Source of the DNA: Paracyclopina nana
Lineage: Eukaryota; Arthropoda; Copepoda; Cyclopoida; Cyclopettidae
Length of the DNA: 64,000 nt
Direction: 5' to 3'
Assembly (NCBI GenBank): GCA_019096065.1
Contig: JAGUCH010000001.1
Span: 1,736,001 to 1,800,000, forward strand
Shown one piece after another: positions 9,183 through 59,480 of the stretch (position 1 is its first letter; the number at the start of each line of letters is the position of its first letter). The notes beneath the pieces were generated by a model, which was not told where the DNA came from, did no database searches, and saw nothing but the letters and a program-made list of their open reading frames with translations. The position numbers and the translations under genes were made by a program.

Positions 9183-9184
9183 GA

Positions 9185-17918: not shown

Positions 17919-17936
17919 CCTTCTAGCGTGGGGTGA

Positions 17937-18181: not shown

Positions 18182-18422
18182 TAGTAAAATAGCATGCCCA
18201 CTTTGTGAGCTGCACTATTTCGGATGGAACAGCATTTGTAGAGACTGTGGAAATGGCATTAGTACGAAAAAAGTACTGACTTTTATTCTTTGCTGTTTTT
18301 GAAGCCACTCAGAAAGAGTGCACAGTCAGGTATGGCAATACTAGCAAAATAGCATGCCCACTTTGTGAGCTGCACTATTTCGGATGGAACAGCATTAGTA
18401 GAGACTGTGGAAATGGCATTGG

Positions 18423-28158: not shown

Positions 28159-28291
28159 GCTGCTTTGGTATAACTTTGGTAACTATGGGAGAGTATTCAT
28201 GGAGCGCAAAAATTGCTCTTAGTTAGCAATTGAGAAGGGTCATAGATGGCGCTCTTTTATTAAATACAGTTAACAATACATTCCAAATTAT

Positions 28292-29143: not shown

Positions 29144-29401
29144 GATAATTAATGCTTATAAAACTTCTAATGAGGTTGAGTATGGTGTACGGTTTTGTGA
29201 TGCCCAACAGATTGGAGGATTACTTTGCAAATGACAATCCTTTTTGAGCTTGGTATTAAGCAGCTTTTCAGGTTTCATAAGGTCTCTTTAAAGCCCACTC
29301 GATCCTTGCTCTCAAGCAAGAAAAAAATTCTCCTAGTTCTAAAGCATTTATTTATATTTTTCGATTATGGTGAAGATATCAAAATAATTGATCAACCAAG
29401 A

Positions 29402-35600: not shown

Positions 35601-38600
35601 CACTCCAACTTCCTCAGGAGGAGACCTTATGTCTGTTTCACTGCAATGCAAAAAAGTCACATAAGAGCCAAATGCTTAATTTTTTCAGCTTAAAACAGCC
35701 CTTCTGGTAACTCCGGAGCAAGTTGTGCAAGAATTAAAGATGCTTACATGATTGAGCCATCTTCTGAGGCTGACCAAAGGATGTTTGGACAGGTGGGAGT
35801 GACCTCCATTCTTTTGACTCGGTTCACGTGCTTCCTGTAGCGCTGCACCGTCTTTTGGGCCTCCATGTCATGGAGCTCAATCACAAAATCAGCTGCCCCA
35901 CTGGCTATCAAATTGTTCCTAGTTTCCGGCATGAACTTGACGCTGAAGATGTTGCCATTGTGGCCGGTGGCGATGGAGTTGACGCGCCTGCCCTGAAACG
36001 GGTTCCAGACCATGACATGCACGTCATCTGAGCCGTGGTGTGCGACGGTCACACCCTCTGAAGCCTAGGATGGTTAGCATCGGCTTCATGGTCACGGTAC
36101 CGTTCGCAGCCTCCGGGTGCTGGCCGGATGTCTACCCGCCTTGGACCCAAAGCCGCAGCCTCGGTGCTCCAACTCCGGCGAGATACATCACATGGCAAGC
36201 TTCAGTGCTGTAGACCAGTGATTGGGCCTCCTACCCTCGTCCTCAACGGCCTCAACAGCCTCAGACGAGGATGCATAACTGCCCAGGAAACCTCTATACA
36301 AGTTATGGTCGAACAAAGTCAAACAAGGTTGTCGTATTCACTCAGCTTTTAACACCACACAAATTAATGGCAGCAAATACAAAGAAATAAGTACTGCAGT
36401 AAATATTCTTGTGGCCATCTTCTTCATGCCTCAGCACACTTTGGAGAACTTTGGTGGGACAATAGCAGGGCAGAGCTCACTCAATGGGCTATGTGCACTT
36501 GGTCCATGTCTTGTTTCTCTGAAGTCCCCCATCGAACTCCCCGAGTCTTCTCCTTCTTCTCCACTCGATGCATCGCAGCAAGTTCCATCAGCTTCCATCT
36601 GCTTCTCTCCGTTATCATGCAGCTGCAGGTCCTCTCTATGTAGCAGCTAGCAACTCCTCCACACAATGGCTAGCAACTTCTCCACTCAAGGTCAGGTGAA
36701 TTGCCATAGGTAAGGCTCAACGCATAGGTAGTAGCAGCAACAGCAGCAACAATCAGAGAGTTGGAGGAGATGAAAAGGTGTTTTTTGAGAAGGGAGGTTT
36801 TGTGATTTTGAGGTGGTGATGTAGCGGTGAATGGGCAACCTTCCGGACTTCTGGCGGCTCCACGGGCTCCACGGTTTCCACAGGTTCCACTGGAGGGGTC
36901 CAATCAAGTCCTATTCTGGTCGTAACGTGCACCAGAGACATGATGTACTTATTGCCCATCATTCCCCGGCCCTAACTTTTTCAGCTTTTGAAATAGTTTT
37001 TAAGCTCTAAAAATATAAAAAAGGTGTCATTGATCGCTTACATCACATTAAGGTTGATACAGTTATTATACTAACGTCGCGCCTCCCAGGCCACTCATTC
37101 GCACAGTAAGGCGCTGATTTTGGTCAGCATCTTTCTTGCGATCTCCTCTATTGTAGCGAAGCCGTGGGCGGGACGTATTAGGTCTCACATAGCCTCCATC
37201 ATCATAACATCGGCTGCATACTCGCCGCCTTTTCCAAATCAATATGCCCATACACGTGAATCCCAGTGCTGCAGACAATAGGCTCACCGTCAGGATTATT
37301 TCCCAATTATTGAATAAACCTCCAAGTTCATCTTCAGGGAATTTTGTAAAGAACTTCACCATATCACTTTCCCAAGGAGAGTCCTCGTATCCAGTACTTT
37401 GAGTTCCAAGGGAAACCTTACAATTGCTAAGGATCTGATAGGATCCTGGTTCCAATACCACCGAGTTCTTGAAGTCATTTAAACAAGTCCTATTAATCAT
37501 TGCACTTGAGACCAAATTTAAGAACCCTTTATAATTAGCACATCCCACATCAGTGAGCGTGTTAGTTTTAAGTGGCTCTAATTCACAGGCGTCAAAAGGG
37601 TCACCCAGAGCTAGCCCTAAAAGTACTTTAGCACAGTGCTGGACTCCTTCTGTCAAGTCAAAGTCCTTGTTTTCACACACGGTTAAATTATGGTCATGAA
37701 CGAAGCAATCACTATAGATGGGTATTTCCCGAGACACAAACACTAGATCATTTCGGCGGGTCAAATACCTATCATGCAGTAAGAATCCGTCTTTGCTTCG
37801 TGACACAATATGATATGTGACCTCAGGGGTAGGGTCCATTTCTTTATACCCAACTATTCCCTGAGTGACAAAGTCTCCACTCTGCTCAGTGTTCGCCAAA
37901 GGTTCATAAACATTAGTAATGGTGGCCGCATTTCTGTCACTATTATGCGCCAGAGTTGGTAAGCTGAACCGTGTGCCTGCCTGCCCAAAATTTCTGGCAA
38001 ATTGCACAACTGTGTCAGCATATGACAATACTTGCTGCAGATCATTTGGTAATAATCCAGACTTCAAAAATACCTTGCTAAAACCTTTCAGTAGTCGAAA
38101 GGCCAAAGAAACTTTCGGTGGTACTCTCAGTGGAGTGGTATTTGCTATCATGCCATCGGTGAATTTTGTCGATTTACCTGATTCTGCTAGGGCCATCACG
38201 GCGTTGTAGGCCTTTTCAAGGAAGCTTTTCCTCCCAGACAATTCAGATTTGACAAAGTCCTTATGGGTGATGACAAAGTCATTTTGAACACATATTGTTG
38301 CCTTCCCATCACTGTGTGGTGCATGGGCTTTAACTGACGTCATGGTCCTCGGCCCTTGTCCCACAGTGAAATACCCCGTGATACACGGGTAACCTGCAAT
38401 TATCTCATCATCCGGTTTTTTCTCATACCCCACTTGAGGAAATGTGGTTTTCCCATCCAAGGACATAGGTACCTCATTGACGATCCGAAACTTTACACAT
38501 AAAGTTACCTTAGTGGCAAGAGGGCTTTCCTTTGCCGTATAACGTAATAGTTCTAGAAAAACGTCCATGTCTTCATAAGTTTTAGGGGCAAATGGTACAA

Positions 38601-41600
38601 ACCCTTGACGTTTGGAACAAGCTTTGTCGATGGTGTTAGGGGTACTCTCTTCTCCAACTGCCAACATATTCCCAATATGGACCAAGTCCTCCTTGTCCTT
38701 AACTTCTTTTACCACGGTGTCAATATTATTCAGGACGCCAATTGTTGATTGCAAAAGGCCACTGTAATCCTTCGTATCTAACACCATAGCCTTTTTCACC
38801 ATTCTAGGATGATGGACCACTCTAACTGGAACTAGGGCATGTCCGGAATGGCAAAGTGCCTCATCCAGTACGAACTGAGTATTTGGGTAGTTGGACAGGC
38901 CCCAAGTGCCAGATCCCAAAAGGGTGAGTATGAAGGCCAATTCAAACGACATCTTACCAGCACAAACTCTGATCAGAAACTATTTGGGCCCCAAGACCGC
39001 TAACTTTCCTTATAAACCCAGACAAGTATGGGCACGCCACCTCACTATGTCTAGACATTCTTTGCTTTTTTCCATTGGTTTTTTATTATCATAGCATGTC
39101 GACATGTATGGTAAAAAGTTAAGAGTATTGGCCCACAACCAAGTATTTTATCAATATGTACAATTCGATTCTGAAGGGTAATTTCATTTTTTAGAACTGC
39201 CCGACAAATCCATTAATCGCCTCAGTGAATACCTTGATGTCGCTGGGGGTCATTTCCTCCATTTTAGCCTGGAGGAGATAGTTCACACGCTCCTTATTCT
39301 TATCGACTTTGGAGCGCTTAGCGTGCAAAATGTCTGGTCCATTCGTTCCTGTGCCAAAAGGGCGCCCGCGCGCTACATCGGCGTACAGTCTAGGTCCTCG
39401 CCTTGGTTTTTGTTGCCAAGACTTCTCCACAAACGCAGCTAGTTTTTGGGGCCTGGCCCCGGCTGTGTACCTCACGCATTGCGGATATGTCCCAATGGCT
39501 CGATCGACAAACTGGGCTACCATGGTAGGCAGGAGTGCGGTCATATCGATCTTCACGTCCAATTTTCGTGGTGCTTGAGCCACGCCATTGTTAAGGCAGG
39601 ACGGCGGTCCCACATACAGTTGCACGTAAGGCGACGTCAAATCATGGAACATCCGCGGATCCCAAAATGATGAGTCCAATGTTGGCATGATCTGAATGCA
39701 GCCTCGCTTGGTATAATGTTTGGAGACTACTACAGGGAGTTGAGCTCCACCCTGTCCACGGATTCCATGCACATAATACCCAACAGCTGTTGGGCTCTGG
39801 ACGGCAGACCAACTCCTGACATTGGCCAACTTATGGACATTCTCGTCATATTCCATCTTGTCAGGCAAGTTGTAGACTGGTAGATTGTCTAGCATCGGAA
39901 ATATAACAAGAAAATCGAATCTCCTCCTTTACTCACTGGCTCGATAATCAATTCAATGCAGTCAAAGTTTTTCACCTTCAATGGCCTACGAGGCTCGGTC
40001 CGTTCATAGGGTTCTCCATTTATCCTAATCGTCAGGTCAAAAGGCACCTCCTTTCCAACAGTCATGACCTCTTTCGTAGCTATCTTCAACAGGCTTGCAT
40101 CATAATGCTGCTGTATAGTAGCTCTGGTCCGGCTCGCCTCCCTCGCATAGGCCTGTAGACCCTCCATGTGGGGAGGCCTGATCAAATCCTCAAATGGCAA
40201 TGGGTACCCCAAACTGGAGGATACCCTTTCCAATGGGACCTCGAGGGGTTCCTCTTGGTCCTGGTGCCTAGTCGTCTGATTCTGGGCTTGGTTCTCAATA
40301 TTGACAGCAGGCATGTTGCGATCCATAACTGGCTCATCATCCTTTAGGAGCTCACTAACCTCTTGTTCGTTGAACTCTCCAGTCTTATCAGTCTCCATCA
40401 TAGAGACCAATGCAGATTCTCCTTCCATGGATTCGGTGATCAGAGACATCCTTAGATTATCGAGGCTATTCAAGCTATCGCTCATTTCCAGACTGTTGCT
40501 GTAAGGCCGTAACCTGCCCTTTTTATACACATCTTTACAGGTATGCCCCACACTCTCGGGCATTTAAATGCGTGGGTTGTCCCTTTTAAAAAACCCAAGG
40601 TCATTTTTTGTCTAGGTAAAAAAGAACAAGTTAACAGGACTTATACCACTTCCTTATAAGATGGGCGCGTGCGCGCACGCTCATCGTCGAGTTGCACGGA
40701 CATTTTTGACTTCCTAGGTCGAGAAACGTAGCGAGGGTGCAACAGGCAGTTGCAACTCTCAGCTTTCACTTAATGTTGATCATTCTCCCATCGGACTTCG
40801 TCCAAGCTGGTCACTTTTCTAGAGATATTCCAATCCCAATCAACTCGCGATGGTCATTTTAGCCTGGGTTTCTCTAACTCCAGAGGGCAGCTCTACAGAG
40901 GCTCCCACTGAGGTTCCAATCCAGCCATCAATGGTGGATCCTGCGCTAGTGGATTCTCAAACCACGGGCCCAGTAAGTCCTACTGTTGCTATTCCTGAGA
41001 GTGGCATTTCTGAAGCCGAGGGTGGACCTGGATTTGGCCCAGCTCCTGTCGACCCCTTTGAAGTGGAGGTGTTTGACCCCCGAGATTTAATGCCAGCGGT
41101 ACCAAATGGTTATCGTCCCATTGCCCCTCAGAGGGACTGGATCGATGAGGTTTTCAATTACCACCGATACGGTGTAATGGGATGGATCGGTCTTGGAGCG
41201 TCCATTGGGATGGCTTTGGTAAGTTCAACCTTATAACTAGTTTTGCAACTATGGCCAAACTTTTATTTACCACCTCTTCCTTACAGATTTTGCTTGGCAT
41301 GTTGGTGTACTTCTGCGTGTGGACATCACGATGGTGCCGTAGGTTCGTGGCCACGTTTCGAGCTATTCGTACGGAGTCAGCGGCTGCCAGTGGAGCCATG
41401 CAAATGCTTCCAACAAAGGCCCCATCTGAGCATGCAGCGGTATTCCACTGCTGTACACCAGAGGTCCGAGCTTTGCCACCAGCCCCGATTATGCGTGACC
41501 CTGATGTCCATTCGCTCCAAATGGCAATGGCTGCCATGGACCCCTATGGAACACTACGCCGGAATCCCAGCATCATGTCCGGGCTGGCCCACATCTATGA

Positions 41601-50600: not shown

Positions 50601-53600
50601 GACAATCCGTAACTATGACTAGTCGCTCATAGGCGAATAGTATGCTTTTAAAATGGTTTATCATTGTTAAAACTCCTAATGCTTCACGCTGAAACGAGTG
50701 GTACGAGAGGCAAACTGATAAAGGAAAGCGTGCGCTGTGTGCACCAACACACACAGCTTTACCATCCTCATTCACCTCCATTAATAAAGCTGAGGTGCTA
50801 ATTACCCCAGAATCAACCACTAAATAACCTTCTTTAAAACGTGGCAATGCCAGTGACATACCTGTTTTAATCTCGTCTATTACTTTATAGAAACATTTTT
50901 CTTGGAAAGCAGTGAAGGTGAACTTTCCTGTTTTCCCTTGCGCTGTTTGTAATACATCTAGCAGTGGAGCTGTGTATGTAGCCATGTTAGGACAGTACTG
51001 GCTTAACCAGTTTGTCATTCCAATAAACTTTTGCAGCTGTTTCTTGGTTGTGGGAATAGGGAAATCATCAAATGCAGACCTGAATTTATCGGGCATTCGC
51101 ATAGTCATAATCCCATTTTCGTCAATAGATATTAGGTGCCCTAAGACTGTAGCTTCTTTAACACCTAATTGTGTCTTTTTAATTTGTAATAGGGCATTTA
51201 AGTCCTTGAGGCTTTGAAACAACTTCCTCAGATCACCTAAATGTCGTATGTAATCATCCAATGTAGCAGGCCTAGGCTTGCCAGGGTTCTTACAGGCCAC
51301 AACCAAATCGTCTACATATACACATGTAAAGGGCAATATCTCAGGGTTAAGGGCCTGTTGGAGGAGCTCTGCGAACATTCTCGGAGCAATGGCGATCCCT
51401 TGTAGGCATGACTTACTTTTCAGAAAGACTGATCTATATATACTGCGAGGGGACGTTACTGCAAAGCAGCACATATCAGCACTATCAGAGTCCACAGGTA
51501 AGTTATCGTATCCGGATGTTACATCGAAAGATGACATTAAACACGAATTAGATAACATCCCTAGCAAGGTAGGGATAGGTGGCACTATGTGCTCCGAAGT
51601 CGTAAATATCAGATTTTTATTAAAAGATGTTAAGTCAACTAGTAGCCGAGGCTTGCGTTGCTTCATAGGCAGCTTTTCATCATTTGGCCTTGAAGTCAAG
51701 AAACAAGGGCAAGCCGAGTACCTATTAAGTGACTTATCCACAATTTCAATTAATCCAGATGACAGCATTAATGCTATTTTACGGTCAACCTGCGTAGTTT
51801 CATACTCCGACATGTTAAATACTTTTGGCACTAATGGTTTATCATCCTTTAACTGGAACTTCATGGGTTCGACATTCCATAGCCTATATGATCTAGGATC
51901 CTCCGAGAATATAGTCTTATATTCTATTAAGAGGTCCCTAAAGTCTTCTCTGACCTCATCCGGAATGTGTTCTAGATCCATGTTCAGGATCATTTCTGGT
52001 TTCAATGGAAATGTATAACCTGCTACTCCATTTAAAACACGGAGGGGGTCAAATTCACTTGGAAATTTCAAAAGGAGATTATAAACCTCATCATATAGTT
52101 TTTGGTTATTTCTCTCATCTTTAGAAAGCTCCAGGCTAGCTGATACGAGGTCTAGTTCAGAAGGACTTTTTAGAACTGTTTGTCTGACACTGGTATCCAC
52201 AATAGGACCTTCGTAAATAGTAGTGAAGCTCTTAAGTGGCACTTTGATGCCCATGTTCTTTGCCAAGCAAGGCTTGCACGAGCAACCATGTGGTTCAAGT
52301 ACAAATGGTATAAATTTACCAAATTTTGTCTTTATATCCTCTTTGGTAAGGTCATCAGGGTACATTTGTAACCCAGATAACACTAGCAATGCAGCGGTGG
52401 TTGCCATACAAAGTGGGTCACCTACATGCACATCGCCATCCATAAGTGTTCTGATCCACACGTCGTCGGCCACATTTTGGTACCGTAATTGACCAATTAT
52501 TATGTACATAAGCGTGGTTAAGTAGCCAATATTCTCAGCATGTTCGCTAGGGACATGGAATATTAACTCAACATTGTTGGACAACTTAAACATGATACCA
52601 TGAGCTCCAAGAACATTTAGTTCAAAATACTTATCTAGTTCATTTCTTTGATAAGCAAGTGGGTAATTCTCATACTCATGTATCATCATAGTTATTATGA
52701 CCCTATCCATCCCATTGAGGTAGGATTCAATAGGACACAAGGCAATGGTCATGCATGGTGGGCAAATATACTTATATTTTAGCCATACTACTTTAAGTTT
52801 ATCCACCATCATATTCATCTTTATTACAATGCGCTTTTGTTCGCCAGACAAAAGTTTATGTCCTGGGACAATAACAGCCCACGGTAATTCATCCCATTTT
52901 TCTCGTTTCATAAATTTGCTAATTATCACATCAGTTATCTCTTCGTAACCATCACTTTGGTTAGCTGAGATAAATACGTAATTTCCTTTTCTACTAATCA
53001 AGGGCTTGTGGCTTCACTTCAATGGCTCATAGGCATTGAAAAAATGCATATCAGTAAAAGAAAGACCATTTATATCCGTAAACTGCACAATTACGTGCGA
53101 ATCCAAATAATTGCAGTAACATGACTCCATTTCATGCTCCAGGGCCTTTAAACTAATGTTAGCCACATGGGCTGCAACCGTACTCTTAAATTTCTGTTTC
53201 TTGACAATCCTGGCTCGCCCAATCACTGCATGTGCATTTAAGTAGATGGGATCCTCAGTATTATTCCCAATATTTACTGGGAAAGTACCTTTACGAGTGA
53301 CAGCAGTAAGTGCCCAATCAGAGGTCACTCCGCGGTACTCGTTACTAGGCATAAAGTTTAAGTACTTATCCACCAATCCGGAATAAACATTTTTCTGGTG
53401 ATGGGTACGACCAAGGTCGTCATCTTCGTCAGAGTCAGAATCTATTTGAATGTCATTACTGATGACAGGTAAATCATGAGGTAAACTAGCCATGGTGGTC
53501 ACTTCTTCTCCAGGGAGCAGAGTGATCCCTTCATTTATTGCCACTGGGTAGAAAGCCTCTTTTGATAGTAAGAGTGGAATTTTCTTATGTTTAGATTTTC

Positions 53601-56600
53601 CAGGGAAATCCATAAAGTGCTTTCCATCTTTACTAGTCATCCGGACATTGTTGTCCACTAATAACGAAGTTTCCTATCATTAATAGTGTATCACAATCAG
53701 ATACAAGGAAAACAGCCTGTCTGATTAAAACACGATTTCCAAATGCAACTTGAATAGAGACAGCTTCATTCCCTGGGAATTCTTCTCCATTGAAGTTCTT
53801 AATTACATAATTAGTTTCAACTCGAGGTAGAGTGTAACCAATCTTGTCTTCGATCAGTTTTACAAGGGTGCGTGATATTATCTGCACCATTGCTCCACTG
53901 TCAAATAAAGCATGCAAACGTATTTTTCCAGTTATCTCCACTGGTATAAAATACCTTTCACAAACATTGTGTAGCTTTAATGAGTATATACTCAGCATGT
54001 CATCTTCAAGTTCCGGATTCGGTAAAGGTTCAAAATGTGTTACTGGCTCTGCTTCATTAGCATTTACCGATGCCAGATGTGTAACGATACCATCATTACT
54101 ACAAGTTTTTTGCTCATCATTCGTGCTACCTTTTACAAAGTAGTACCATAAAGCTATTATTGCTCCACTACAGATTACTGTAATTGGCCAATAATTCCAA
54201 CCAAATAAACAATATTGACATATTGTTATTACAATCAGTATTATGCTAATCTCATTCACAGTCATAGTATGCTGAGGGACAAACCGACTTTTTCTACCCC
54301 TTATTGCAAGAACCAGAGCCTTTTCGTCCTTACTTCCACGAGTCATAATTTCAGCATTTTTTACAGATTGCTCCTTTAAATAATCAAAGTAAGCTCGTCC
54401 TACTTCTTTGTTACATTCTCCCCTCATAAATGAAGGCAAGATGTAACTATCTTTATCATTCTTATTGGGAGTTTTTGTACTTGGTCCCATTATTGTTTAC
54501 GAGCAGGTCGTGTCTTCCAACACTGTTCTCCCCTAAACTCAAGGTGCAATCCTTTACACAATGGGCACAATGTGCCATCGTTTCTAATCGAGGTCAAATT
54601 CGTGTTTGGGTAATTCGTACACTGTGTAGCGTAATGCATTTGGTTGCAGAACAAGCACCCATTAGTCTGAAGAGGGTTTCCTTCAGGCAACTTAGATGTA
54701 TCTATGTTAAAAGTTTTTCCCAGCCTATTTATTTTCTCGGATGGTGATTCAGCTTTCATCATAGCTACTTCAACAGCTTGCCTACTCAATTCAAAATTTG
54801 CTCGAGCCAACTCGCTTTGTAGCTCATTTATTATTTTAGCACTTCGTTGACTACGGCCAGAGGCTGCCGACATAGTGCTAGCACTGTCTAACACCTCCTC
54901 TTCAGTAGCTTCAACCATAGCAATTCTAGGTTTGGCACGCATATTGGGTACCATTGGCAGCCTCTCCTCTTTATGAGCCCTATCCGGGTCCCTTGGCACA
55001 TAAGTACCTAGGTCACTACCAATTAGGTTCATCATGATATTGTAGGCGTGCAAACTCCTAGCAGGTATATTCGCTCTCAGCAGATAGTCGTTGTATTTGT
55101 TTACTAATGACTGGTAATTCTGAGGCCAATGACGTCCTAAGAGTGCAAAACCATCAGAGATGGCTTCAGAGACTGCATGAGCATCTCCGCCATCTCCAAT
55201 GGTTGTGCTATGTATCTTCATTCGCAGTCGAAGAATTGCCTTAAGTGTGGCAGTGAAGCACTCAGTAGGCTTCCGGATCATCTCCTGAATGAGGAAATAT
55301 GGATCCTCTTTACGCACAAACTGCGTGTAGTTAAAGATATCTTGCCATAGCAATTCCATACCATCTTTTCCTTCTCCAGCCATCCCCTTAAAATACTCAC
55401 TAGTATTCTGGGATGAAGCCTCACACATGGCTGTTAACAAAGCTGCATGAGACCAATGCTGTCTGCCAGCCTCGTTCGCCATATAGTCCAGAAAATTTAT
55501 TATATTCTCAGCAGTTAATGAGGAACTATGTAAATCAAACTTTTTAGTATATTTGTGCCTAATCTCCTTCATTGACTGTGAGCTTGCATACTTAACATGG
55601 CCATTCGTAGGTGCAGCGATGTAACCTCTCATGGTAGTCGGATCATAAATGCTCCTAGAAGTGTCAGCTGATACTCCAGCGGCCACACTTATTTCAGGGG
55701 TCTTCAAGTAGCCCTCTGCCAATATCTGCTTTTGGAGAGAAGTAAACTCGTCCCTCGTGCTAAGTACACTAAAGAGCTTCTGCATCTCAATCAATTTCTT
55801 TCCTGAGGATAAGTTTGGGTCAACCATCTGAAGGATTACTCGTCTGGCTGATTCCACATCCTTAATCTCGTCGGTGTTAATTAACTTCAGCCTCTCTGAA
55901 ATCGGAGCAGACTCATCGTAGATGACGTCAGTTCCGGCACCATTCTTTCCTTCGTCGCAGCATCTACTATGCTTAAGGTTCTTTCTAAATTCTTACTGAA
56001 GATAGACTCTACTTTTGCCCCAACCATGTGCTTAGCCGTGATTTGTGCAGAGGCAATGATTTTATTTGCCGTGCTTGCATCATGCATTTTCGTGTAGTAA
56101 GCTTTTACCGTGTTCAATTCCTGAATATTCAAATGGCCTCCTGACAACATCTTTTGTACCATCCTATGTACAACTTCCATTGGAGGAAGCGTGACAGAAT
56201 TAGTCAAGTTGTGCAAATCACGAGGATTCATTTTAGTCGAGGTTAGGACTGACTTATTTTGGCCATTCAGATCAACACCTGTAGTGAACTCATGATGGTT
56301 AGTCCCAGGTGGACTTGCTATCGAAGACATATCTGGAACAGCATTACTCGTCTCATTGTTTGGAAAATGTACACTCTGGCCTGAAGTTTTCTGTGGCTTC
56401 AGGTTAAGCGGCTCATTTAGGAAATAATCGATTTGTAGGCCATAAAGCCTCGCTACAATGGAAAATCCATCTCCAAATGCCCGTATCTTTAGCCAATTCC
56501 TGGATATCAATGTCGCAACCATTTCATGCGTCCCTGACATTGCGTAGGTCATGGAGCTTCCATCAACTTCTTGGATACGCTGCAGATCTTTCTTTTCCTC

Positions 56601-59480
56601 AATACGAGTTAGGAACTCATCCAGACCAAAACAAATGCATAATAAAGCACAGGTCGTGCTTGTCAATGAATTAGGGTCAAGTGCATCAATATATTTAACC
56701 ACATTTACAACCTGGCCTACTGGATCTTTAAGAGGCATAGTCCTAATGATTGCCGTAATATGATCATCCAACGGTCTAATTGGCTCCCTAGGAACAATTA
56801 CTATCCGAGTCCTATCCCAGACAGCTGCTATTTGTGCTGGGGTTACCGTAACAAACTCTAGTGCTTCAGGGTAAGCAACGTGTGGCAGAAATCTTTGCAA
56901 GACAGTCCTGCTGGTCCCATTTGGGTGGCATTGGGATAAGTACCCTTGAAAAGTGTCCTCACTAATCCCAAGATGTTGCAACAATCGATCCTTTACTTTC
57001 GTAACTTCCTCAGCCAGAGTAGGTCCAGTGATCCTAGAATCCTGATTAGCCATTCTTATCTTGTAAAAAGCGTGACGGAGTCACACGAAGTATTTCTTAT
57101 CTCTTAGAGGTGCAACGGAGTCACACGCAATATTCTGGTCTTAGTACACTACTGTGTGTACTAAATTCGGTAATACCGAATTAAAAGCTATACGCTGTTC
57201 AAAGCACAGGGAAGCTTGTCCTAATTACTACGCCGCGTCAAGTGACACAGAGAAAAAGGTTGCAGTTGCTAAGCTCGTTTATTTATTTTTTGTCTAGGCT
57301 ATGAGCGGCCAAGACAAAACACACACACAAACGCACGCACAAATACACACACTCACTTATTACAATATAAAAGATGGAGTAAAATTTGGCACTACTGGTG
57401 CCAACAGGTGTATGGATGGTAATTTCTTCTAAGTCTCTGAAACAAAGGTGCATCAACTTTTTACGCAAAAAAGGTATGCCACTTCGCCAACCAGTGTCGA
57501 CTCAGTGAATGAAAAATAAAAGTTTGCCCACTCCTCCTCGAGTTGCGGGCCGGCCAACCTTCCCTGTGCCCTCGGCAACTTGTCCAAGGTTAGCCAGTTT
57601 TTTGGGCCCCAAACACGCATTTTCCTTTGTGGCTCCCACTCTGGCTCCACGCGTGGCCTATTTGGGGTTTGTTGACTCACAACGGAGTCATGGATTACAT
57701 CATCTTCTTCCATCTGTGTGGCCAAACCCACGGACGAGACCCACTAGTGTCGCAACACTCTTGCGCTCACTCGCCCCATTATGGATAGGCAACAGAGGCT
57801 CAGGTCGCAACCTGCACCTTGGCTGGCTTTCCGGCTGCCATGGCACCCATACTCCAAGCTATGCCATGCGGAGCCTGCACGCATGCATTCACCTCCGGGA
57901 AAGACAGTGTCATTGTTACTTTGTGTAGGCCCATCATCATAACAATGGTCCATGGAAGACATCATCAACGGGCTGGTGGTACGTCACGGCCTGTACCTTC
58001 TTGCACTCCCCGCGCGCCAGTTCCAACCCGCCAACGGCATCAATGCGCAATTTGGGTCTAAGGGAATCTAAAGCCTACGCACCACATAGGCCCAAATGCC
58101 ATCGGAGTGACCCCCATCGGCTCGTCAGCCTTCGGGATTTTGCTTTTGTACTGTAGTAGACACACCCTGATCGCAATCAGCGTGCGGCCCAACCTGCGCC
58201 GCAGAGCAGGAATCTTGATCCACACCAAGACATTTTCCGGGACTTCGTAGTATTTTGGTCATCAAACCTTTAGGAGAGAGAGTGGCCTTCAATCCCTCCG
58301 GGGCCTCCAAAATGGTGTGCGACGGTCACACCCTCTGAAGCCTAGGATGGTTAGCATCGGCTTCATGGTCACGGTACCGTTCGCAGCCTCCGGGTGCTGG
58401 CCGGATGTCTACCCGCCTTGGACCCAAAGCCGCAGCCTCGGTGCTCCAACTCCGGCGAGATACATCACATGGCAAGCTTCAGTGCTGTAGACCAGTGATT
58501 GGGCCTCCTACCCTCGTCCTCAACGGCCTCAACAGCCTCAGACGAGGATGCATAACTGCCCAGGAAACCTCTATACAAGTTATGGTCGAACAAAGTCAAA
58601 CAAGGTTGTCGTATTCACTCAGCTTTTAACACCACACAAATTAATGGCAGCAAATACAAAGAAATAAGTACTGCAGTAAATATTCTTGTGGCCATCTTCT
58701 TCATGCCTCAGCACACTTTGGAGAACTTTGGTGGGACAATAGCAGGGCAGAGCTCACTCAATGGGCTATGTGCACTTGGTCCATGTCTTGTTTCTCTGAA
58801 GTCCCCCATCGAACTCCCCGAGTCTTCTCCTTCTTCTCCACTCGATGCATCGCAGCAAGTTCCATCAGCTTCCATCTGCTTCTCTCCGTTATCATGCAGC
58901 TGCAGGTCCTCTCTATGTAGCAGCTAGCAACTCCTCCACACAATGGCTAGCAACTTCTCCACTCAAGGTCAGGTGAATTGCCATAGGTAAGGCTCAACGC
59001 ATAGGTAGTAGCAGCAACAGCAGCAACAATCAGAGAGTTGGAGGAGATGAAAAGGTGTTTTTTGAGAAGGGAGGTTTTGTGATTTTGAGGTGGTGATGTA
59101 GCGGTGAATGGGCAACCTTCCGGACTTCTGGCGGCTCCACGGGCTCCACGGTTTCCACAGGTTCCACTGGAGGGGTCCAATCAAGTCCTATTCTGGTCGT
59201 AACGTGCACCAGAGACATGATGTACTTATTGCCCATCAGCCGGAGGCCAACAATTGGCCGTCCTCGGACCACTGAATACAATTGACACACCCATCGTGGC
59301 CTTCAAGCTGAGTCTCGAGGCCAAGACGTTGAATTGAGGCCGATGTCACTTGGAACTGACGACGAAAATCGAGGCTGCTCAACAGCTGAAAAGAAAAAGT
59401 TCTTTTTCCGCCAAATGTTTGTTTACGTTTTTGCAGCTTACTGAAACCTCTCGCCGAAAGAGGCCGGTCGTCAAATCCAT
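32679..59480 (-). CDS. WDTC1: WDTC1/adipose orthologue, split by element B
   Basis: WD40 plus TPR protein, in animals a DDB1-CUL4 substrate receptor that limits fat storage (Drosophila adipose). Exons: 59480-59442, 59385-59239 then 36031-35748 (one exon cut by element B), 35640-35451, 35387-35069, 35014-34678, 34621-34385 and 33066-32679. With the insert and one GCCG removed, the frame is open for about 646 residues. Visible: the start 'RLGLETQLEGHDGCVNC', WD repeats, the TPR block around GNRAAAYIKRNWNGD, the conserved RFCGHCNTTTDIKEANFFG and the C-terminal GPVQCR(T/P)S end. All follow human WDTC1 closely. The insertion lies in blade 1, between the codons for LLASG and SDD. On this haplotype no normal mRNA is expected unless 23 kb were spliced out. 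An ACSL gene lies downstream. Confidence 0.93.
33097..33487. repeat. MITE in a WDTC1 intron
   Basis: Terminal inverted repeats of at least 25 bp: GTCTGACCGTTCAAAATTGG at the left, and its reverse complement CCAATTTTGAACGGTCAGAC at the right. Weaker inverted similarity continues inward (TGGAAAGATTGAGCC versus GGTTCAAGCTTTCCA). It is about 390 bp with no coding capacity. The inner part is related to 19635-19720. Confidence 0.8.
36032..36035. other. Target-site duplication GCCG (left)
   Basis: GCCG precedes the element at 36032-36035 and follows it at 59239-59242. One copy belongs to the WDTC1 exon. Confidence 0.88.
36036..36961 (-). repeat. Element B 3' LTR
   Basis: 926 bp, beginning TGATGGGCAATAAG on the minus strand and ending GCACACCA. 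It has the same length as 58313-59238, the shared open frames translate identically, and I saw no difference. The sequence just before it on the minus strand (AGGGCCGGGGAA) is a polypurine-tract candidate. Confidence 0.93.
37066..38952 (-). CDS. Element B membrane glycoprotein, envelope position
   Basis: 628-residue predicted type I membrane glycoprotein in the normal place of env, directly before the 3' LTR. It has a signal peptide (LAFILTLLGSGTWG), an ectodomain with about 15 Cys and several N-x-S/T sites (for example NTTP, NLTV, NRTC), a membrane span near residues 555-577 (WEIILTVSLLSAALGFTCMG) and a basic cytoplasmic tail of about 50 residues. I do not recognise the family; it is unlike the env of element A and unlike baculovirus F proteins as far as I can tell. 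An upstream TATA box (39009-39018) suggests its own transcript. Entry or fusion is inferred from position and topology only. Confidence 0.8.
   Translation of the reverse strand: MSFELAFILTLLGSGTWGLSNYPNTQFVLDEALCHSGHALVPVRVVHHPRMVKKAMVLDTKDYSGLLQSTIGVLNNIDTVVKEVKDKEDLVHIGNMLAVGEESTPNTIDKACSKRQGFVPFAPKTYEDMDVFLELLRYTAKESPLATKVTLCVKFRIVNEVPMSLDGKTTFPQVGYEKKPDDEIIAGYPCITGYFTVGQGPRTMTSVKAHAPHSDGKATICVQNDFVITHKDFVKSELSGRKSFLEKAYNAVMALAESGKSTKFTDGMIANTTPLRVPPKVSLAFRLLKGFSKVFLKSGLLPNDLQQVLSYADTVVQFARNFGQAGTRFSLPTLAHNSDRNAATITNVYEPLANTEQSGDFVTQGIVGYKEMDPTPEVTYHIVSRSKDGFLLHDRYLTRRNDLVFVSREIPIYSDCFVHDHNLTVCENKDFDLTEGVQHCAKVLLGLALGDPFDACELEPLKTNTLTDVGCANYKGFLNLVSSAMINRTCLNDFKNSVVLEPGSYQILSNCKVSLGTQSTGYEDSPWESDMVKFFTKFPEDELGGLFNNWEIILTVSLLSAALGFTCMGILIWKRRRVCSRCYDDGGYVRPNTSRPRLRYNRGDRKKDADQNQRLTVRMSGLGGATLV
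39009..39018 (-). promoter_or_regulatory. TATA box candidate for the glycoprotein gene
   Basis: Minus-strand GTTTATAAGG lies about 57 bp upstream of the ATG at 38952, in the gap between the glycoprotein and basic ORFs. Confidence 0.45.
39191..39895 (-). CDS. Element B basic ORF, unknown
   Basis: 234 residues, no signal peptide or membrane span. It is net basic in its second half (KPRRGPRLYADVARGRP, HAKRSKVDKNKER), which suggests RNA or nucleocapsid contact. I do not recognise it. Its ATG overlaps the stop of the preceding ORF in the string ATGCTAG (39895-39889). This suggests coupled termination and reinitiation from one mRNA. A GT-AG intron joining the two ORFs (gtgagt to ctag) was tested and does not keep frame. 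Confidence 0.6.
   Translation of the reverse strand: MLDNLPVYNLPDKMEYDENVHKLANVRSWSAVQSPTAVGYYVHGIRGQGGAQLPVVVSKHYTKRGCIQIMPTLDSSFWDPRMFHDLTSPYVQLYVGPPSCLNNGVAQAPRKLDVKIDMTALLPTMVAQFVDRAIGTYPQCVRYTAGARPQKLAAFVEKSWQQKPRRGPRLYADVARGRPFGTGTNGPDILHAKRSKVDKNKERVNYLLQAKMEEMTPSDIKVFTEAINGFVGQF
39889..40563 (-). CDS. Element B acidic ORF, unknown
   Basis: 224 residues. The first half is acidic and probably disordered (SLITESMEGESALVSMMETD, ELLKDDEPVMD); the second half is more ordered and basic. An acidic ORF followed by a basic ORF and then a glycoprotein recalls the P-M-G order of mononegaviruses, but I see no homology and regard that as a superficial likeness. Its start faces the plus-strand gene at 40850 across a 286-bp gap with a palindromic TATA. 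Confidence 0.55.
   Translation of the reverse strand: MPESVGHTCKDVYKKGRLRPYSNSLEMSDSLNSLDNLRMSLITESMEGESALVSMMETDKTGEFNEQEVSELLKDDEPVMDRNMPAVNIENQAQNQTTRHQDQEEPLEVPLERVSSSLGYPLPFEDLIRPPHMEGLQAYAREASRTRATIQQHYDASLLKIATKEVMTVGKEVPFDLTIRINGEPYERTEPRRPLKVKNFDCIELIIEPVSKGGDSIFLLYFRC
40564..40849. promoter_or_regulatory. Probable bidirectional promoter inside element B
   Basis: Separates divergent genes. It contains CTTATAAG at 40653-40660, a palindrome that reads as a TATA box on both strands, and the palindrome GCGTGCGCGCACGC at 40667-40680. Either strand would start transcription within about 150 bp of its ATG. Confidence 0.45.
40850..41900 (+). CDS. Element B antisense spliced membrane protein 1
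   Basis: Not recognised. Three exons, 40850-41218, 41287-41622 and 41691-41900, with canonical gtaagt/ttacag and gtaagg/ttttcag borders, join in phase to give 304 residues ending TAA 41898-41900. The N-terminus is Pro/Thr/acidic. One membrane span (about residues 115-138) is created exactly across the first intron (GASIGMAL then ILLGMLVYF). A basic juxtamembrane stretch follows (SRWCRRF), then a long C-terminal part with an Arg-rich cluster (KRRSRRARARDNRR) and an acidic tail. There is no signal peptide, so a tail-in topology is plausible. It runs opposite to the retroelement, so full-length element RNA would carry it as antisense and its introns would not be removed. AATAAA lies at 42209-42214. 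Confidence 0.7.
42390..43098 (+). CDS. Element B antisense spliced membrane protein 2
   Basis: Probable diverged relative of the preceding gene. Exon 42390-42416 (MAGFLHGLF) joins exon 42488-42646 (Thr/Ala/Pro-rich, PSTTTVAPATEAPVG). The third exon may start at 42705 (acag) or 42723 (ctctag), in the same phase. The first choice meets TAG at 42720-42722 after five codons. The second runs through one hydrophobic span (VAGAATYYVVVLPALAWV) and a basic part to TAG at 42927-42929. A further GT-AG intron follows the stop, and AATAAA is at 43093-43098. It is strikingly GC-rich compared with its neighbours. Whether the TAG is avoided by splicing or is a nonsense mutation cannot be told from sequence. 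Confidence 0.5.
43130..44931. repeat. Repeat-bearing spacer of element B
   Basis: There are no long open frames. Four degenerate copies of a GCATTCCAGCTCGGCCTTGA-like 20-mer occur at 43383, 43461, 43574 and 44454, with similar flanks at the second and fourth. A perfect palindrome ATGGTGGCGCCACCAT lies near 44183-44198. A TATA-like GTATATATACTCCCCCC near 44749 is followed by CAG|gtaagtat near 44820 on the plus strand. This could be a further promoter with a short non-coding exon. Confidence 0.5.
44932..46467 (-). pseudogene. Broken (or heavily spliced) gene of element B
   Basis: On the minus strand there is a signal-peptide-like start (MTVILVPIFYGVTTFTLS at 46467) running into a gtaagt. Coding-looking fragments follow in changing frames: about 46303-46064, 46040-45880, 45819-45490, 45500-45350 and 45210-44932. 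Several have Cys and N-x-T motifs. The frames are separated by stops and small shifts with no consistent intron borders, so a decayed secreted or membrane glycoprotein gene is the best reading. I have not reconstructed it. Confidence 0.4.
46487..49702 (-). CDS. Element B integrase with a very long tail
   Basis: Inserts element DNA into the host genome. The ORF begins inside the integrase zinc finger: C-x2-C is here (CMHC), while the matching H-x3-H (HLLHNH) is in the RT frame. The catalytic core has D in LVMIDLAKF, D in LLADNGAQ and E in NAYAENAI, with about 39 residues between the last two by my count, where 35 is usual. About 850 residues follow the core, rich in Ser/Pro/acidic residues. 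They contain two related motifs, NYRSLAGFQKYN (near 47155-47195) and NYRELAGIRKYG (near 46815-46850), each after an Arg-rich LR.RK stretch. The tail may be a separate fused product. A -1 frame change near 49711-49717 is needed to reach this ORF from RT. Confidence 0.85.
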   Translation of the reverse strand: MYSTYSARISRIIIGACMHCALYRQANTRFVGKGRFRIPTQPWELVMIDLAKFDDTLVKGSSAKDLLVFVDVYSKMIIAKPLLDAKYKQVANAMEEVISLFGVPKTLLADNGAQLTTNKALQRLVDRYKIKELCHYRTLSPYKHSNAYAENAIRIIRSALVLNSNSYNMRLCDVFKTSIYAINNRPLTYLAYTDDKGVKITPTPFSLFFDKMPFYHLGRDVFEILSESEDKIHKAEWRQRMREYDLEEQFHLEKMKATERPSFKPEIGSLVLVIKHPINKQRYKFMDDLFEVIDIGQHSTVTVKPYLYDGLTREVSLDHVKLYRFHELYRFLPEKLSNLLKRPYTPEEILRKKARNEVIEFLEGAAPESHDYSLRGHTKASSIVASQSSLISQSTSMDTEPSAIHQTYKRSGSILMQKAASLFKPSDILRIQEENKQLVQKQWEQYDRKKLEEKYLADNAGNNILHKEASDSLSDTGTDEFIEQAIALSANTGPNEAFYEDMLALSQRGPPTFAEMAQQERLYPNLPSVKPDHISTPDRSNVSEGTLAGVSPVKWAFRGQYRDQRVPDIPESPEKYHTPDQSMSATPNKDNDNIEEIVEKAASFIAPSKFDTDLESLSAGLESMQLALPTDPFGGNTHDDENESSDSDDTTTIYYTARKNLRRTPLTKSIKQNVQKAIDIVRRQLELSPRKRPPSPPIDNPMEGPSAPKPEIYGAEGGEPQVRYTIMKSPVRKPDLQPKNSELPNAGVPQTVPSTNVLEHPSAKVTPLGDLAMTEKEHLTHQATPGVAHPTVRQTGPVVPQPGTQKPPEAVVRAPYEPEKLSPLSFLPHNLRRRKNVNYRSLAGFQKYNKKNVPAGLPAIAQPDPSEALTRSEAALTTEQDTSPSQNVQQLLDTNLLVSSDQPSSSAATSFAEPKEPESSAAAQPAVDPGISEPTPLRILPRRQLRERKGTVNYRELAGIRKYGKEKSKVGKEQKYFPNIPRIAPLDREDKEFARVRFTNTKERPDQKERELLEEVIPNWKLNKNMAAVPDYIQFLKATGMDHQDDSNINEMKRLRLTYDELYKLAFKKFK
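49564..53001 (-). CDS. Element B reverse transcriptase and RNase H
   Basis: 1145 codons. The N-terminal third is unassigned and includes a Cys cluster CSCKPC. The RT has RKPRLLVDLTSFNK, SFDVTSGYDNLPVD and the catalytic YVDDLVV, then the gypsy-type thumb TKKQLQKFIGMTNWLSQYCP. RNase H follows (LVVDSGVISTSAL; conserved E in QREALGV; D in IVTDCLS). The end enters the first half of the integrase zinc finger and then runs out of frame. The upstream ORF 53658-53014 is in the same frame, separated only by one UGA, so this may be reached by stop readthrough. Confidence 0.87.
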   Translation of the reverse strand: MISRKGNYVFISANQSDGYEEITDVIISKFMKREKWDELPWAVIVPGHKLLSGEQKRIVIKMNMMVDKLKVVWLKYKYICPPCMTIALCPIESYLNGMDRVIITMMIHEYENYPLAYQRNELDKYFELNVLGAHGIMFKLSNNVELIFHVPSEHAENIGYLTTLMYIIIGQLRYQNVADDVWIRTLMDGDVHVGDPLCMATTAALLVLSGLQMYPDDLTKEDIKTKFGKFIPFVLEPHGCSCKPCLAKNMGIKVPLKSFTTIYEGPIVDTSVRQTVLKSPSELDLVSASLELSKDERNNQKLYDEVYNLLLKFPSEFDPLRVLNGVAGYTFPLKPEMILNMDLEHIPDEVREDFRDLLIEYKTIFSEDPRSYRLWNVEPMKFQLKDDKPLVPKVFNMSEYETTQVDRKIALMLSSGLIEIVDKSLNRYSACPCFLTSRPNDEKLPMKQRKPRLLVDLTSFNKNLIFTTSEHIVPPIPTLLGMLSNSCLMSSFDVTSGYDNLPVDSDSADMCCFAVTSPRSIYRSVFLKSKSCLQGIAIAPRMFAELLQQALNPEILPFTCVYVDDLVVACKNPGKPRPATLDDYIRHLGDLRKLFQSLKDLNALLQIKKTQLGVKEATVLGHLISIDENGIMTMRMPDKFRSAFDDFPIPTTKKQLQKFIGMTNWLSQYCPNMATYTAPLLDVLQTAQGKTGKFTFTAFQEKCFYKVIDEIKTGMSLALPRFKEGYLVVDSGVISTSALLMEVNEDGKAVCVGAHSARFPLSVCLSYHSFQREALGVLTMINHFKSILFAYERLVIVTDCLSIASVLASSFTGKDAFTHRLAARIYSLPVAWKLRAVPRTEVEVVDVLLNKYHQTPEGETVFYAPYSIAGQITKDIYANKYPLPDAIKDKVLTTQELLTHVYDTLVNSGTMSKTLLQKRLHCLNDKWVDMIGTKPPFVHDDTSTLLQAKHDDDEILEDEILSKLSHSFHGEADFDSPVNHIENNLRVDTVTVKRRISPHLPGITRNLLIKLQQNCEETQKIINLIMLSPPEKVPLDVAVKYRVLDGALLVIRKNVKLPFSVATNTKVYMSMPNCVYLMACIHLLHNHLGSKRLILFLPNLCIQLTQPESVVLLLVRACIVLYTAKLILGLLGRGVSASRLSHGNW
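53014..53658 (-). CDS. Element B protease-RT linker ORF
   Basis: 214 codons in the same frame as RT, ending in UGA at 53016-53014 (context AAG UGA AGC). The segment GTFPVNIGNNTEDPIYLNAH is typical of the stretch after the protease in Ty3/gypsy polyproteins. An acidic run (DSDSDEDDD) interrupts it. It overlaps the preceding ORF by 26 nt in the +1 frame. Confidence 0.65.
   Translation of the reverse strand: MDNNVRMTSKDGKHFMDFPGKSKHKKIPLLLSKEAFYPVAINEGITLLPGEEVTTMASLPHDLPVISNDIQIDSDSDEDDDLGRTHHQKNVYSGLVDKYLNFMPSNEYRGVTSDWALTAVTRKGTFPVNIGNNTEDPIYLNAHAVIGRARIVKKQKFKSTVAAHVANISLKALEHEMESCYCNYLDSHVIVQFTDINGLSFTDMHFFNAYEPLK
53633..54490 (-). CDS. Element B membrane-anchored aspartic protease
   Basis: 285 codons. 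Two adjacent hydrophobic spans near residues 80-120 (ISIILIVITICQYCLF, WPITVICSGAIIALWYYF) precede a retroviral-type protease with the active-site D-S-G in LHALFDSGAMVQIIS near residue 200. A membrane anchor on the protease is unusual for LTR elements. The ATG overlaps the stop of the capsid ORF as TAATG (54492-54488). Confidence 0.7.
   Translation of the reverse strand: MGPSTKTPNKNDKDSYILPSFMRGECNKEVGRAYFDYLKEQSVKNAEIMTRGSKDEKALVLAIRGRKSRFVPQHTMTVNEISIILIVITICQYCLFGWNYWPITVICSGAIIALWYYFVKGSTNDEQKTCSNDGIVTHLASVNANEAEPVTHFEPLPNPELEDDMLSIYSLKLHNVCERYFIPVEITGKIRLHALFDSGAMVQIISRTLVKLIEDKIGYTLPRVETNYVIKNFNGEEFPGNEAVSIQVAFGNRVLIRQAVFLVSDCDTLLMIGNFVISGQQCPDD
54490..55857 (-). CDS. gag: Element B Gag, capsid/nucleocapsid part
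   Basis: 455 codons from a GTG at 55857. The frame is open further upstream, overlapping the end of the first Gag ORF in the -1 frame, and no in-frame ATG is near. The middle is helical and capsid-like. A coiled-coil stretch (INELQSELARANFELSRQ) precedes two Cys/His knuckles, C-LF-C-NQM-H-YATQ-C and C-PL-C-KGL-H...C, of the CX2CX3H type seen in BEL/Pao Gag. It ends ARKQ at the TAATG overlap with the protease ORF. Confidence 0.72.
   Translation of the reverse strand: MESARRVILQMVDPNLSSGKKLIEMQKLFSVLSTRDEFTSLQKQILAEGYLKTPEISVAAGVSADTSRSIYDPTTMRGYIAAPTNGHVKYASSQSMKEIRHKYTKKFDLHSSSLTAENIINFLDYMANEAGRQHWSHAALLTAMCEASSQNTSEYFKGMAGEGKDGMELLWQDIFNYTQFVRKEDPYFLIQEMIRKPTECFTATLKAILRLRMKIHSTTIGDGGDAHAVSEAISDGFALLGRHWPQNYQSLVNKYNDYLLRANIPARSLHAYNIMMNLIGSDLGTYVPRDPDRAHKEERLPMVPNMRAKPRIAMVEATEEEVLDSASTMSAASGRSQRSAKIINELQSELARANFELSRQAVEVAMMKAESPSEKINRLGKTFNIDTSKLPEGNPLQTNGCLFCNQMHYATQCTNYPNTNLTSIRNDGTLCPLCKGLHLEFRGEQCWKTRPARKQ
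55887..57053 (-). CDS. Element B Gag, N-terminal part
   Basis: 388 codons from ATG 57053, the first substantial ORF after the 5' LTR and leader. It is soluble and helical, without a signal peptide, a membrane span or zinc finger. I assign it as Gag by position and by its continuity with the following ORF, which opens in the -1 frame before this one stops. Confidence 0.65.
   Translation of the reverse strand: MANQDSRITGPTLAEEVTKVKDRLLQHLGISEDTFQGYLSQCHPNGTSRTVLQRFLPHVAYPEALEFVTVTPAQIAAVWDRTRIVIVPREPIRPLDDHITAIIRTMPLKDPVGQVVNVVKYIDALDPNSLTSTTCALLCICFGLDEFLTRIEEKKDLQRIQEVDGSSMTYAMSGTHEMVATLISRNWLKIRAFGDGFSIVARLYGLQIDYFLNEPLNLKPQKTSGQSVHFPNNETSNAVPDMSSIASPPGTNHHEFTTGVDLNGQNKSVLTSTKMNPRDLHNLTNSVTLPPMEVVHRMVQKMLSGGHLNIQELNTVKAYYTKMHDASTANKIIASAQITAKHMVGAKVESIFSKNLERTLSIVDAATKERMVPELTSSTMSLLRFQRG
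57054..58312 (-). promoter_or_regulatory. Element B leader region with primer-binding site
   Basis: Untranslated leader between LTR and gag. Minus-strand TTTTGGAGGCCCCGGAGG follows the LTR end. A primer-binding site starting TGGAGGCCCCGG, 3 nt in, fits a tRNA ending ...CCGGGGCCTCCA, which I cannot name. A CA-rich microsatellite lies near 57320-57360, and a repeated string (CAACGGAGTCACACG) lies near 57110. A possible 86-codon ORF (ATG 57713 to 57453, acidic N-terminus) is unsupported. Confidence 0.5.
58313..59238 (-). repeat. Element B 5' LTR
   Basis: 926 bp, apparently identical copy of 36036-36961. GCCG follows at 59239-59242. Confidence 0.93.

What the first reader, a model, noticed from the sequence alone, without database searches (positions are those of the whole stretch)
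36036..59238. A 23-kb ambisense LTR retroelement with apparently identical LTRs
The two 926-bp LTRs keep a constant offset of 22277 and show no difference that I can see, so the insertion is very recent. Yet the element is 23.2 kb and carries, besides gag-pol, at least six extra genes on both strands. Giant LTR elements are known (Ogre in plants, Burro in planarians). One with divergently transcribed, intron-bearing cargo in an arthropod is, to my knowledge, undescribed.
Basis: partly seen in the sequence, partly recalled or inferred. Interest (0 to 1): 0.93.

Follow-up and report, generated by a model that had tools for sequence, protein, structure and literature searches.

The report
Giant retrovirus-like element with reverse genes
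This is a recently inserted, 23-kilobase retrovirus-like jumping element, present in many copies in what looks like a small crustacean genome, that carries two intron-containing genes written backwards on the opposite strand, an arrangement kept through at least three families of such elements.

Summary
The element is real. Its two 926-bp LTRs match at every base, have TG..CA ends and sit between 4-bp duplications. The genome holds at least 18 LTR pairs of this family. The sense strand encodes Gag, Pol (Ty3-like RT), an unknown protein X and an Env-like glycoprotein; many copies have longer open frames than the window copy, which is broken in gag, pol and X.

The other strand carries two compact spliced genes, P1 (3 exons, 304 aa) and P2 (4 exons, about 130 aa), probably membrane proteins. 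All five introns are present in 38 of 38 aligned copies; P1 is open in 30, P2 in 36. P2's main exon is under purifying selection (p=6e-7; dN/dS about 0.18 between subfamilies). It lies 2.7-3.2 kb from X, on the opposite strand, in 76 of 79 places, including a family whose X is only 25-26% identical. The Env-like protein has no database relative found and a predicted C-type-lectin-like domain.

Giant LTR elements and antisense retroelement genes are each known; I found this combination in none of eight paper searches. No RNA evidence was available.

The parts
58313..59238 (-). 5' LTR (the element reads on the minus strand)
   Evidence: 926 bp, identical to the other LTR; TG..CA; flanking GCCG duplication
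36036..36961 (-). 3' LTR
   Evidence: as above
58288..58306 (-). candidate tRNA primer-binding site 6 bp inside the 5' LTR
   Evidence: the 19-mer occurs 49 times in the genome; 19 of the 49 lie 6 bp from an LTR listed, the other 30 were not checked; the matching tRNA gene was not identified
54490..57053 (-). Gag region; two ORFs here (55887-57053, 54490-55857), one 863-aa frame in 34 of 95 rows; cysteine-histidine clusters at its end (by eye)
46487..54490 (-). Pol region: weak aspartic-protease match preceded by a hydrophobic stretch (by eye), RT, RNase H, integrase core, long C-terminal tail; interrupted in this copy
   Evidence: Pfam; Ty3 is the best PDB match; 8 of 41 rows list a 2669-aa open frame without stops
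43100..46486 (.). about 3.4 kb without a clear coding signal, between pol and the antisense genes
   Evidence: six-frame selection scan: no segment here passes correction for 166 tests
40850..41900 (+). antisense gene P1: exons 40850-41218, 41287-41622, 41691-41900; 304 aa; Pro/Thr/Ser/Ala-rich N-terminal part, one hydrophobic segment split by intron 1, tail with IYDV
   Evidence: splice sites in 38 of 38 copies; open in 30 of 38; same three-exon layout in L047/L046
42390..43099 (+). antisense gene P2: exons 42390-42416, 42488-42646, 42723 (or 42705)-42928, 42992 to AATAAA at 43094; about 130 aa, one hydrophobic segment
   Evidence: selection p=5.8e-7; dN 0.174, dS 0.945 versus L046
40564..40849 (.). 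286-bp gap between the divergent genes X and P1, with a TATA-like box at about 40653 kept in 37 of 38 copies
39191..40563 (-). gene X, unknown; two overlapping ORFs here, one 458-aa frame in 33 of 96 rows
37066..38952 (-). Env-like gene: 628-aa protein with a hydrophobic start and C-terminal hydrophobic helix (type I membrane protein, inferred); residues 83-228 predicted C-type-lectin-like

Best explanation
A young copy of a giant, Env-bearing, Ty3/Gypsy-related LTR retroelement (an endogenous-retrovirus-like family). It copies itself through a minus-strand-sense RNA that runs from LTR to LTR and encodes Gag, Pol, X and Env. Between pol and X, on the opposite strand, lies a cassette of two compact genes, P1 and P2, each with introns of about 60-85 bp and a poly(A) signal after it, probably transcribed from internal promoters. 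Their introns survive retrotransposition because the replicating RNA is antisense to them, so it is not spliced there. P1 and P2 are most likely element-encoded accessory membrane proteins: a Pro/Thr/Ser/Ala-rich outside part, one membrane span, and a tail inside the cell. Shown by sequence: LTRs, duplication, copy number, exon structure, reading-frame selection on P2 exon B, conserved opposite orientation. Inferred: transcription, splicing, membrane topology, particle formation and the role of P1/P2.
For: LTR identity and duplications. At least 18 LTR pairs, 14 of them spaced 22.1-22.6 kb. Ty3-like RT and an integrase core. All five antisense introns present in 38/38 copies, with lengths that vary (67-69, 68-69, 70-76, 75-83, 62-63 bp), while P1 is open in 30/38 and P2 in 36/38. 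Donors GT and acceptors AG kept in 37-38 of 38. Selection on exon B in its plus frame, with dN/dS 0.18 against 0.7-2.1 in the five other frames of the same DNA. Exon B with X on the opposite strand in 76 of 79 places, 7 of 7 in the most distant family. Same P1/P2 order and the same intron inside the P1 hydrophobic segment in L047/L046 and L052.
Against: No RNA data were available: no transcript, splice junction or promoter is demonstrated. Only P2 exon B passes multiple-test correction on its own; segments holding P1 exon 3 and exon 1 have p=5e-4 and p=0.009 among 166, the P1 exon 2 frame gave no clear signal (17:30, p=0.12), and an overlapping minus-strand frame (41157-41543) scored nominally better there (14:15, 2 stop-creating, p=0.024). 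P1 is broken in 8 of 38 copies. P1 in the distant family aligns poorly apart from the hydrophobic segment, its intron position and a YDV motif, and a motif as short as YDV can recur by chance. P2's hydrophobic segment is only moderately hydrophobic in two of three families (best 19-residue mean 1.6-1.7). The window copy itself is defective in gag, pol and X.
Confidence: 0.82

Rival explanations
1. P1 and P2 are host genes captured by the element in reverse orientation and carried as passengers.
For: Compact introns and poly(A) signals after each gene look like ordinary host genes.
Against: A six-frame search of the whole genome with exon B gave 79 matches, 76 of them beside X on the opposite strand. 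Of the other three, two lie among Gag/RT or Gag/Env matches of the element (C2:16258507, C3:5436063) and one (C6:6501187) was not placed. They persist across families whose X is only 25-26% identical, so any capture is old and the genes are retained.
Confidence: 0.12
2. The reverse-strand frames are by-products: the block is noncoding or regulatory (for example antisense RNA that controls the element), and the ORFs are chance.
For: Antisense noncoding transcripts of retroelements are known (PMC7264820, passages). Most other plus-strand segments look neutral.
Against: Frame-specific synonymous excess (p=5.8e-7), dN/dS about 0.18 against 0.7-2.1 in five control frames, and frames kept open across exons in most copies while intron lengths drift.
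Confidence: 0.04
3. The in-frame TAG in P2 exon B is read through, so that CAG at 42702-42704 is the only acceptor.
For: TAG kept in 38/38 copies and in L046, inside an otherwise conserved frame; the CAG upstream is a good acceptor and is kept in 37/38.
Against: In the distant family (L052) the homologous exon also begins right after TAG|GGC, there with a pyrimidine run just before it, so the TAG reads best as an acceptor itself, with the upstream CAG as a second site giving a short product. Two other AGs lie within about 30 nt upstream in L052, so this is not proof.
Confidence: 0.15
4. The element is an exogenous or infectious retrovirus of the host rather than a resident retrotransposon.
For: The Env-like gene is full-length without stops in 34 of 72 rows, LTR pairs without divergence, and mosaic copies as expected from recombination between co-packaged genomes.
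Against: All evidence is from integrated copies; the Env-like model is poor outside residues 61-250 and no fusion machinery was recognised.
Confidence: 0.3

Closest known systems
Burro giant Gypsy-like elements of planarians (PMC6431247, passages)
   Same: Gypsy-like, internal region over 20 kb (here 21,351 bp), extra coding, possible Env
   Different: Burro carries its extras mainly in one huge polyprotein (BIR, ankyrin and others) plus accessory ORFs; here there are separate genes, two of them antisense and spliced, and no such Pfam domains in the ORFs scanned
Ogre of legumes (PMC6431247, passages)
   Same: Giant LTR element of similar total length
   Different: By that review Ogre's size is mostly due to long LTRs (1.9-6.5 kb); here the LTRs are 0.93 kb
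Plant Retand, Grande and RIRE2 antisense aORFs (PMC11963269, PMC7264820; passages)
   Same: Antisense gene between pol and the 3' LTR, conserved in many copies; Grande has an antisense promoter upstream of its gene
   Different: Plant proteins described there are TRP28- or SMC-like or nuclear, and the word intron does not occur in either paper; here two spliced genes for predicted membrane proteins in an animal, with an Env-like gene
HTLV HBZ/APH and BLV AS transcripts (PMC10186651, passages)
   Same: Spliced antisense transcripts in a reverse-transcribing element
   Different: Those start in the 3' LTR and encode mainly nuclear regulators; here the genes lie behind an apparent internal divergent promoter and encode predicted membrane proteins
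Gypsy elements with captured Env (Errantivirus; Anakin with chuvirus Env; PMC12440569, passages)
   Same: Gypsy-type pol plus a glycoprotein gene
   Different: The Env-like protein here matches no Pfam family above chance and none of the 7,996 scored candidates of the large protein set at E<=1e-3

Membership tests
LTR retroelement | paired direct LTRs with TG..CA ends and a short target-site duplication | tested here: met
LTR retroelement | tRNA primer-binding site | tested here: inconclusive
   tRNA-3'-end-like sequence beside the 5' LTR, 49 genomic copies of the 19-mer; no matching tRNA gene identified
Metaviridae (Ty3/Gypsy) | RT closest to Ty3 | tested here: met
   PDB by sequence: 4ol8 3.5e-21 and 7q5b (named Ty3-G Gag-Pol) 1.2e-20; 8r0s 2.9e-14; 7kse/7o0h 6e-11 to 9e-10; 4hkq 6e-5. 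That 4ol8 is Ty3, 8r0s a caulimovirus, 7kse/7o0h foamy virus and 4hkq MLV-type is from recall
Metaviridae (Ty3/Gypsy) | order protease-RT-RNase H-integrase | tested here: met
   (protease match weak, best E 0.0014)
Metaviridae (Ty3/Gypsy) | GPF/Y motif in integrase | tested here: inconclusive
   no GPF/GPY seen by eye in the expected part of the translation; no profile test
Metaviridae (Ty3/Gypsy) | placement in an RT/IN tree with reference families | not tested
   reference sequences for the other families could not be obtained
Belpaoviridae (BEL/Pao) | Peptidase_A17-type pol | tested here: not met
   no PF05380 hit at E<=1, while the same genome has at least 150 such matches
Retroviridae / Lokiretroviruses | tether domain between RT and a second, active RNase H | tested here: not met
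   RT and RNase H align to Ty3 in one stretch (residues 441-805); only the Gypsy-type RNase H families appear
Troyka | CG..CG termini and 3-bp TSD | tested here: not met
   TG..CA and 4 bp
Plant antisense-aORF elements (Retand) | antisense ORF between pol and 3' LTR | tested here: met
   P1 and P2
Plant antisense-aORF elements (Retand) | TRP28 domain | tested here: not met
   no Pfam hit at E<=1 for the three P1/P2 exons scanned; the other exons were not scanned
Retroviral antisense genes (HBZ type) | spliced antisense mRNA started in the 3' LTR | not testable with these tools
   splicing predicted from sequence; start site unknown without RNA

The most novel reading that the evidence does not exclude
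A so far undescribed lineage of giant ambisense retroviruses or retroelements in small crustaceans. It has kept, through deep divergence, an internal divergent promoter driving two antisense, intron-bearing membrane-protein genes, and uses a C-type-lectin-like glycoprotein at its surface. Placing genes on the strand opposite the genomic RNA lets a retroelement own permanently spliced genes.
Probability: 0.55. Interest if true: 0.88.

Novelty: new variant of a known kind. Interest (0 to 1): 0.8.

Why it matters
Introns in a retroelement's own RNA are normally lost or must escape splicing; genes on the reverse strand avoid that conflict. A multicopy, apparently current animal family with several divergent relatives in one 92-Mb genome makes it possible to test why such genes are kept, how a 23-kb RNA can be copied and packaged, and what two small reverse-strand membrane proteins do for a retroelement. 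The Env-like protein had no relative in the searches made, and the P1/P2 exons scanned matched no Pfam family.

Tried and rejected
Env homologues: five-sequence alignment against the large protein set, none at E<=1e-3 (7,996 candidates scored); one chance-level PDB sequence hit; no BFVD fold match at E<=0.001. Viral-contig scan with RT: none. RT in the large protein set: 15 hits, 18-26% identical. Pfam and NCBIfam gave only chance-level hits for Env, X and Gag, and Pfam none for three P1/P2 exons. PDB by sequence gave nothing for the integrase ORF. Copia RVT_2 gave nothing, and its control genomes were silent too. A fold of X or Gag was not run because too few diverse sequences could be fetched. 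An RT tree was not built for want of references. The idea that 45918-46439 is a gene was dropped. Stop read-through in P2 was mostly dropped in favour of an acceptor. A sense splice acceptor before X (motif at 40612) is kept in only 32 of 38 copies, so I do not rest on it. No paper on such an element appeared in the listings of eight searches (open-access library only).

Full report
Observation. The two LTRs (36036-36961 and 58313-59238) are 926 bp and identical at every base; the ends are TG..CA and the insertion is bounded by GCCG on both sides. The window is C1:1736001-1800000 of a 92-Mb, 10-contig eukaryotic assembly. An LTR search scored 40 of 126 candidates: 36 of the 40 rows form 18 pairs, 14 spaced 22.1-22.6 kb and 4 spaced 28-32 kb; in 14 of 18 pairs both LTRs have the same score against the query, in 4 they differ. 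Equal scores do not prove identity; only two pairs were compared base by base, and both had 0 differences with 4-bp duplications (window GCCG; C6 CAAA). Chance is excluded and these insertions are young.

Sense genes. The core genes read on the minus strand. Pfam finds a weak aspartic-protease match, RT, RNase H and the integrase core. By sequence the closest solved structures are Ty3 RT (3.5e-21 and 1.2e-20), then a caulimovirus-type enzyme (2.9e-14) (group names partly recalled). In the large protein set the RT has only 15 hits, 18-26% identical (7,995 candidates scored). Elsewhere in the genome Gag is a single 863-aa frame in 34 of 95 rows (93 of 120 candidates scored), Pol a 2669-aa frame without stops in 8 of 41 rows (40 of 453 candidates scored), and X a 458-aa frame in 33 of 96 rows (all 103 candidates scored); rows include fragments and other families. 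The window copy is therefore broken in gag, pol and X although its LTRs are identical. Either the breaks were already in the RNA that was copied (mobilisation by intact copies), or some are assembly errors; I cannot tell which.

Antisense genes. A plus-strand exon was first seen as a protein match to a relative element whose RT is 74% identical: 72% aa identity over 69 aa in one plus frame, at most 65% in the other frames reported. Exon structure was then read from splice motifs and checked in 38 copies of the block (window plus 37 fetched). P1: 40850-41218, 41287-41622, 41691-41900, 304 aa. P2: 42390-42416, 42488-42646, 42723-42928, 42992 onward, AATAAA at 43094. Donors 38/38; acceptors AG in 37-38/38, the first P2 acceptor being CAG in 20 and TAG in 18 copies. 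The introns are present in 38/38, with lengths 67-69, 68-69, 70-76, 75-83 and 62-63 bp, while P1 is open in 30 and P2 in 36 of 38. AATAAA after P1 (42209) is kept in 37/38 and after P2 in 38/38.

Selection. A six-frame scan of 166 stop-free segments, using sites varying among the copies, gave P2 exon B 35 synonymous: 23 nonsynonymous (29% synonymous expected, p=5.8e-7). The segment with P1 exon 3 gave 19:13 (p=5e-4), with P1 exon 1 20:22 (p=0.009), with P1 exon 2 17:30 (p=0.12), with P2 exon A 9:7 (p=0.033). Against my reading, a minus-strand frame over P1 exon 2 (41157-41543) gave 14:15 with 2 stop-creating sites (p=0.024). Nothing beyond 43.1 kb survives correction. Between window and L046, exon B has dN 0.174 and dS 0.945; in the five other frames of the same DNA dN/dS is 0.7-2.1. 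The copies recombine and are related, so the p-values are indicative only.

Depth of conservation. Exon B has 79 matches in the genome (all 81 candidates scored): 56 at 78-100%, 16 at 65-74%, 7 at 44%; two rows have an internal stop. For each I looked for X upstream within 12 kb, using 82 of the 96 X rows. It is there on the opposite strand in 76 of 79 (54 of 56, 15 of 16, 7 of 7) and in none on the same strand, at 2.7-3.2 kb; in the seven most distant copies X is only 25-26% identical. L052, from the distant family, shows the same order, the same phase-0 intron inside the P1 hydrophobic segment, a YDV motif in the P1 tail and the P2 exon A/B junction. There the exon begins after TAG|GGC, which suggests that the conserved TAG in the main family is a splice acceptor rather than a stop to be read through.

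How it works. LTR-driven RNA of minus-strand sense is the genome and the mRNA for Gag and Pol; X and Env presumably come from spliced sense RNA (a candidate acceptor is kept in only 32/38). Plus-strand promoters (a TATA-like box at about 40653 is kept in 37/38) would make P1 and P2 mRNAs that end before a 3.4-kb noncoding stretch. Since the copied RNA is antisense to P1/P2, their introns are not removed in it. Each protein has one hydrophobic segment (best 19-residue mean 1.6-3.3) preceded by a Pro/Thr/Ser/Ala-rich stretch (34-57%) and followed by basic residues at or near its end, suggesting N-outside membrane proteins; their role, perhaps in release, attachment or protection from re-infection, is a guess.

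Recombination. Identity of copies to the window switches between blocks (for example L028: 0.88-0.91 over about 41.7-43.2 kb, then 1.00 to 46.7 kb), as expected from template switching or gene conversion.

Host. A host acyl-CoA ligase gene has its best hits in unnamed metagenome proteins (62%); the first clearly named organism is Lepeophtheirus salmonis (45%), a copepod, followed by insects (best 120 of 3,679 hits listed). A small marine copepod-like crustacean is my inference.

Known kinds. Giant LTR elements (Burro, Ogre; PMC6431247, passages), antisense aORFs in plants (PMC11963269 and PMC7264820, passages) and spliced antisense transcripts in deltaretroviruses (PMC10186651, passages) are each in print. 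Troyka (PMC12440569, first part and passages) is excluded by its termini and TSD. I found no report of a giant animal element with spliced antisense membrane-protein genes in the eight searches named under Tried and rejected. I rate it a new variant of a known kind.

Noticed in passing
window 8638-18426: A second LTR-type element on the plus strand, 53-63% GC at 10-18 kb against about 40% around it: PNMA-like Gag, Gypsy-type Pol and a glycoprotein matching the Monjiviricetes fusion family (E 3.9e-72). Its flanking repeats lie in swapped order left and right, which I cannot explain.
   Followed up: partly
window 27328-28182 and 28295-29155 (minus): Two neighbouring open frames that look alike by eye, with many hydrophobic segments, perhaps receptor-like; no Pfam family above chance.
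   Followed up: no
G000 C6:6470711, C6:1145477, C9:747166, C3:834813, C8:5345308: Gag matches at 26% with 848-aa open frames: perhaps a fourth giant family; by eye no P2 exon B match lies within about 25 kb of them.
   Followed up: no
G000 C4:864792-893582: Two copies of the cargo block 22.28 kb apart in the same orientation, suggesting tandem elements that share an LTR.
   Followed up: no
G000 whole genome: At least 150 BEL/Pao-type matches (150 of 243 candidates scored), many in open frames of 1,400-3,100 aa: the genome seems rich in young LTR elements.
   Followed up: no
LTR pairs at C3:4804109, C1:2620487, C3:3945511, C2:16519080: Four LTR pairs are 28-32 kb apart, so about 6-9 kb seems inserted or duplicated inside those copies.
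   Followed up: no
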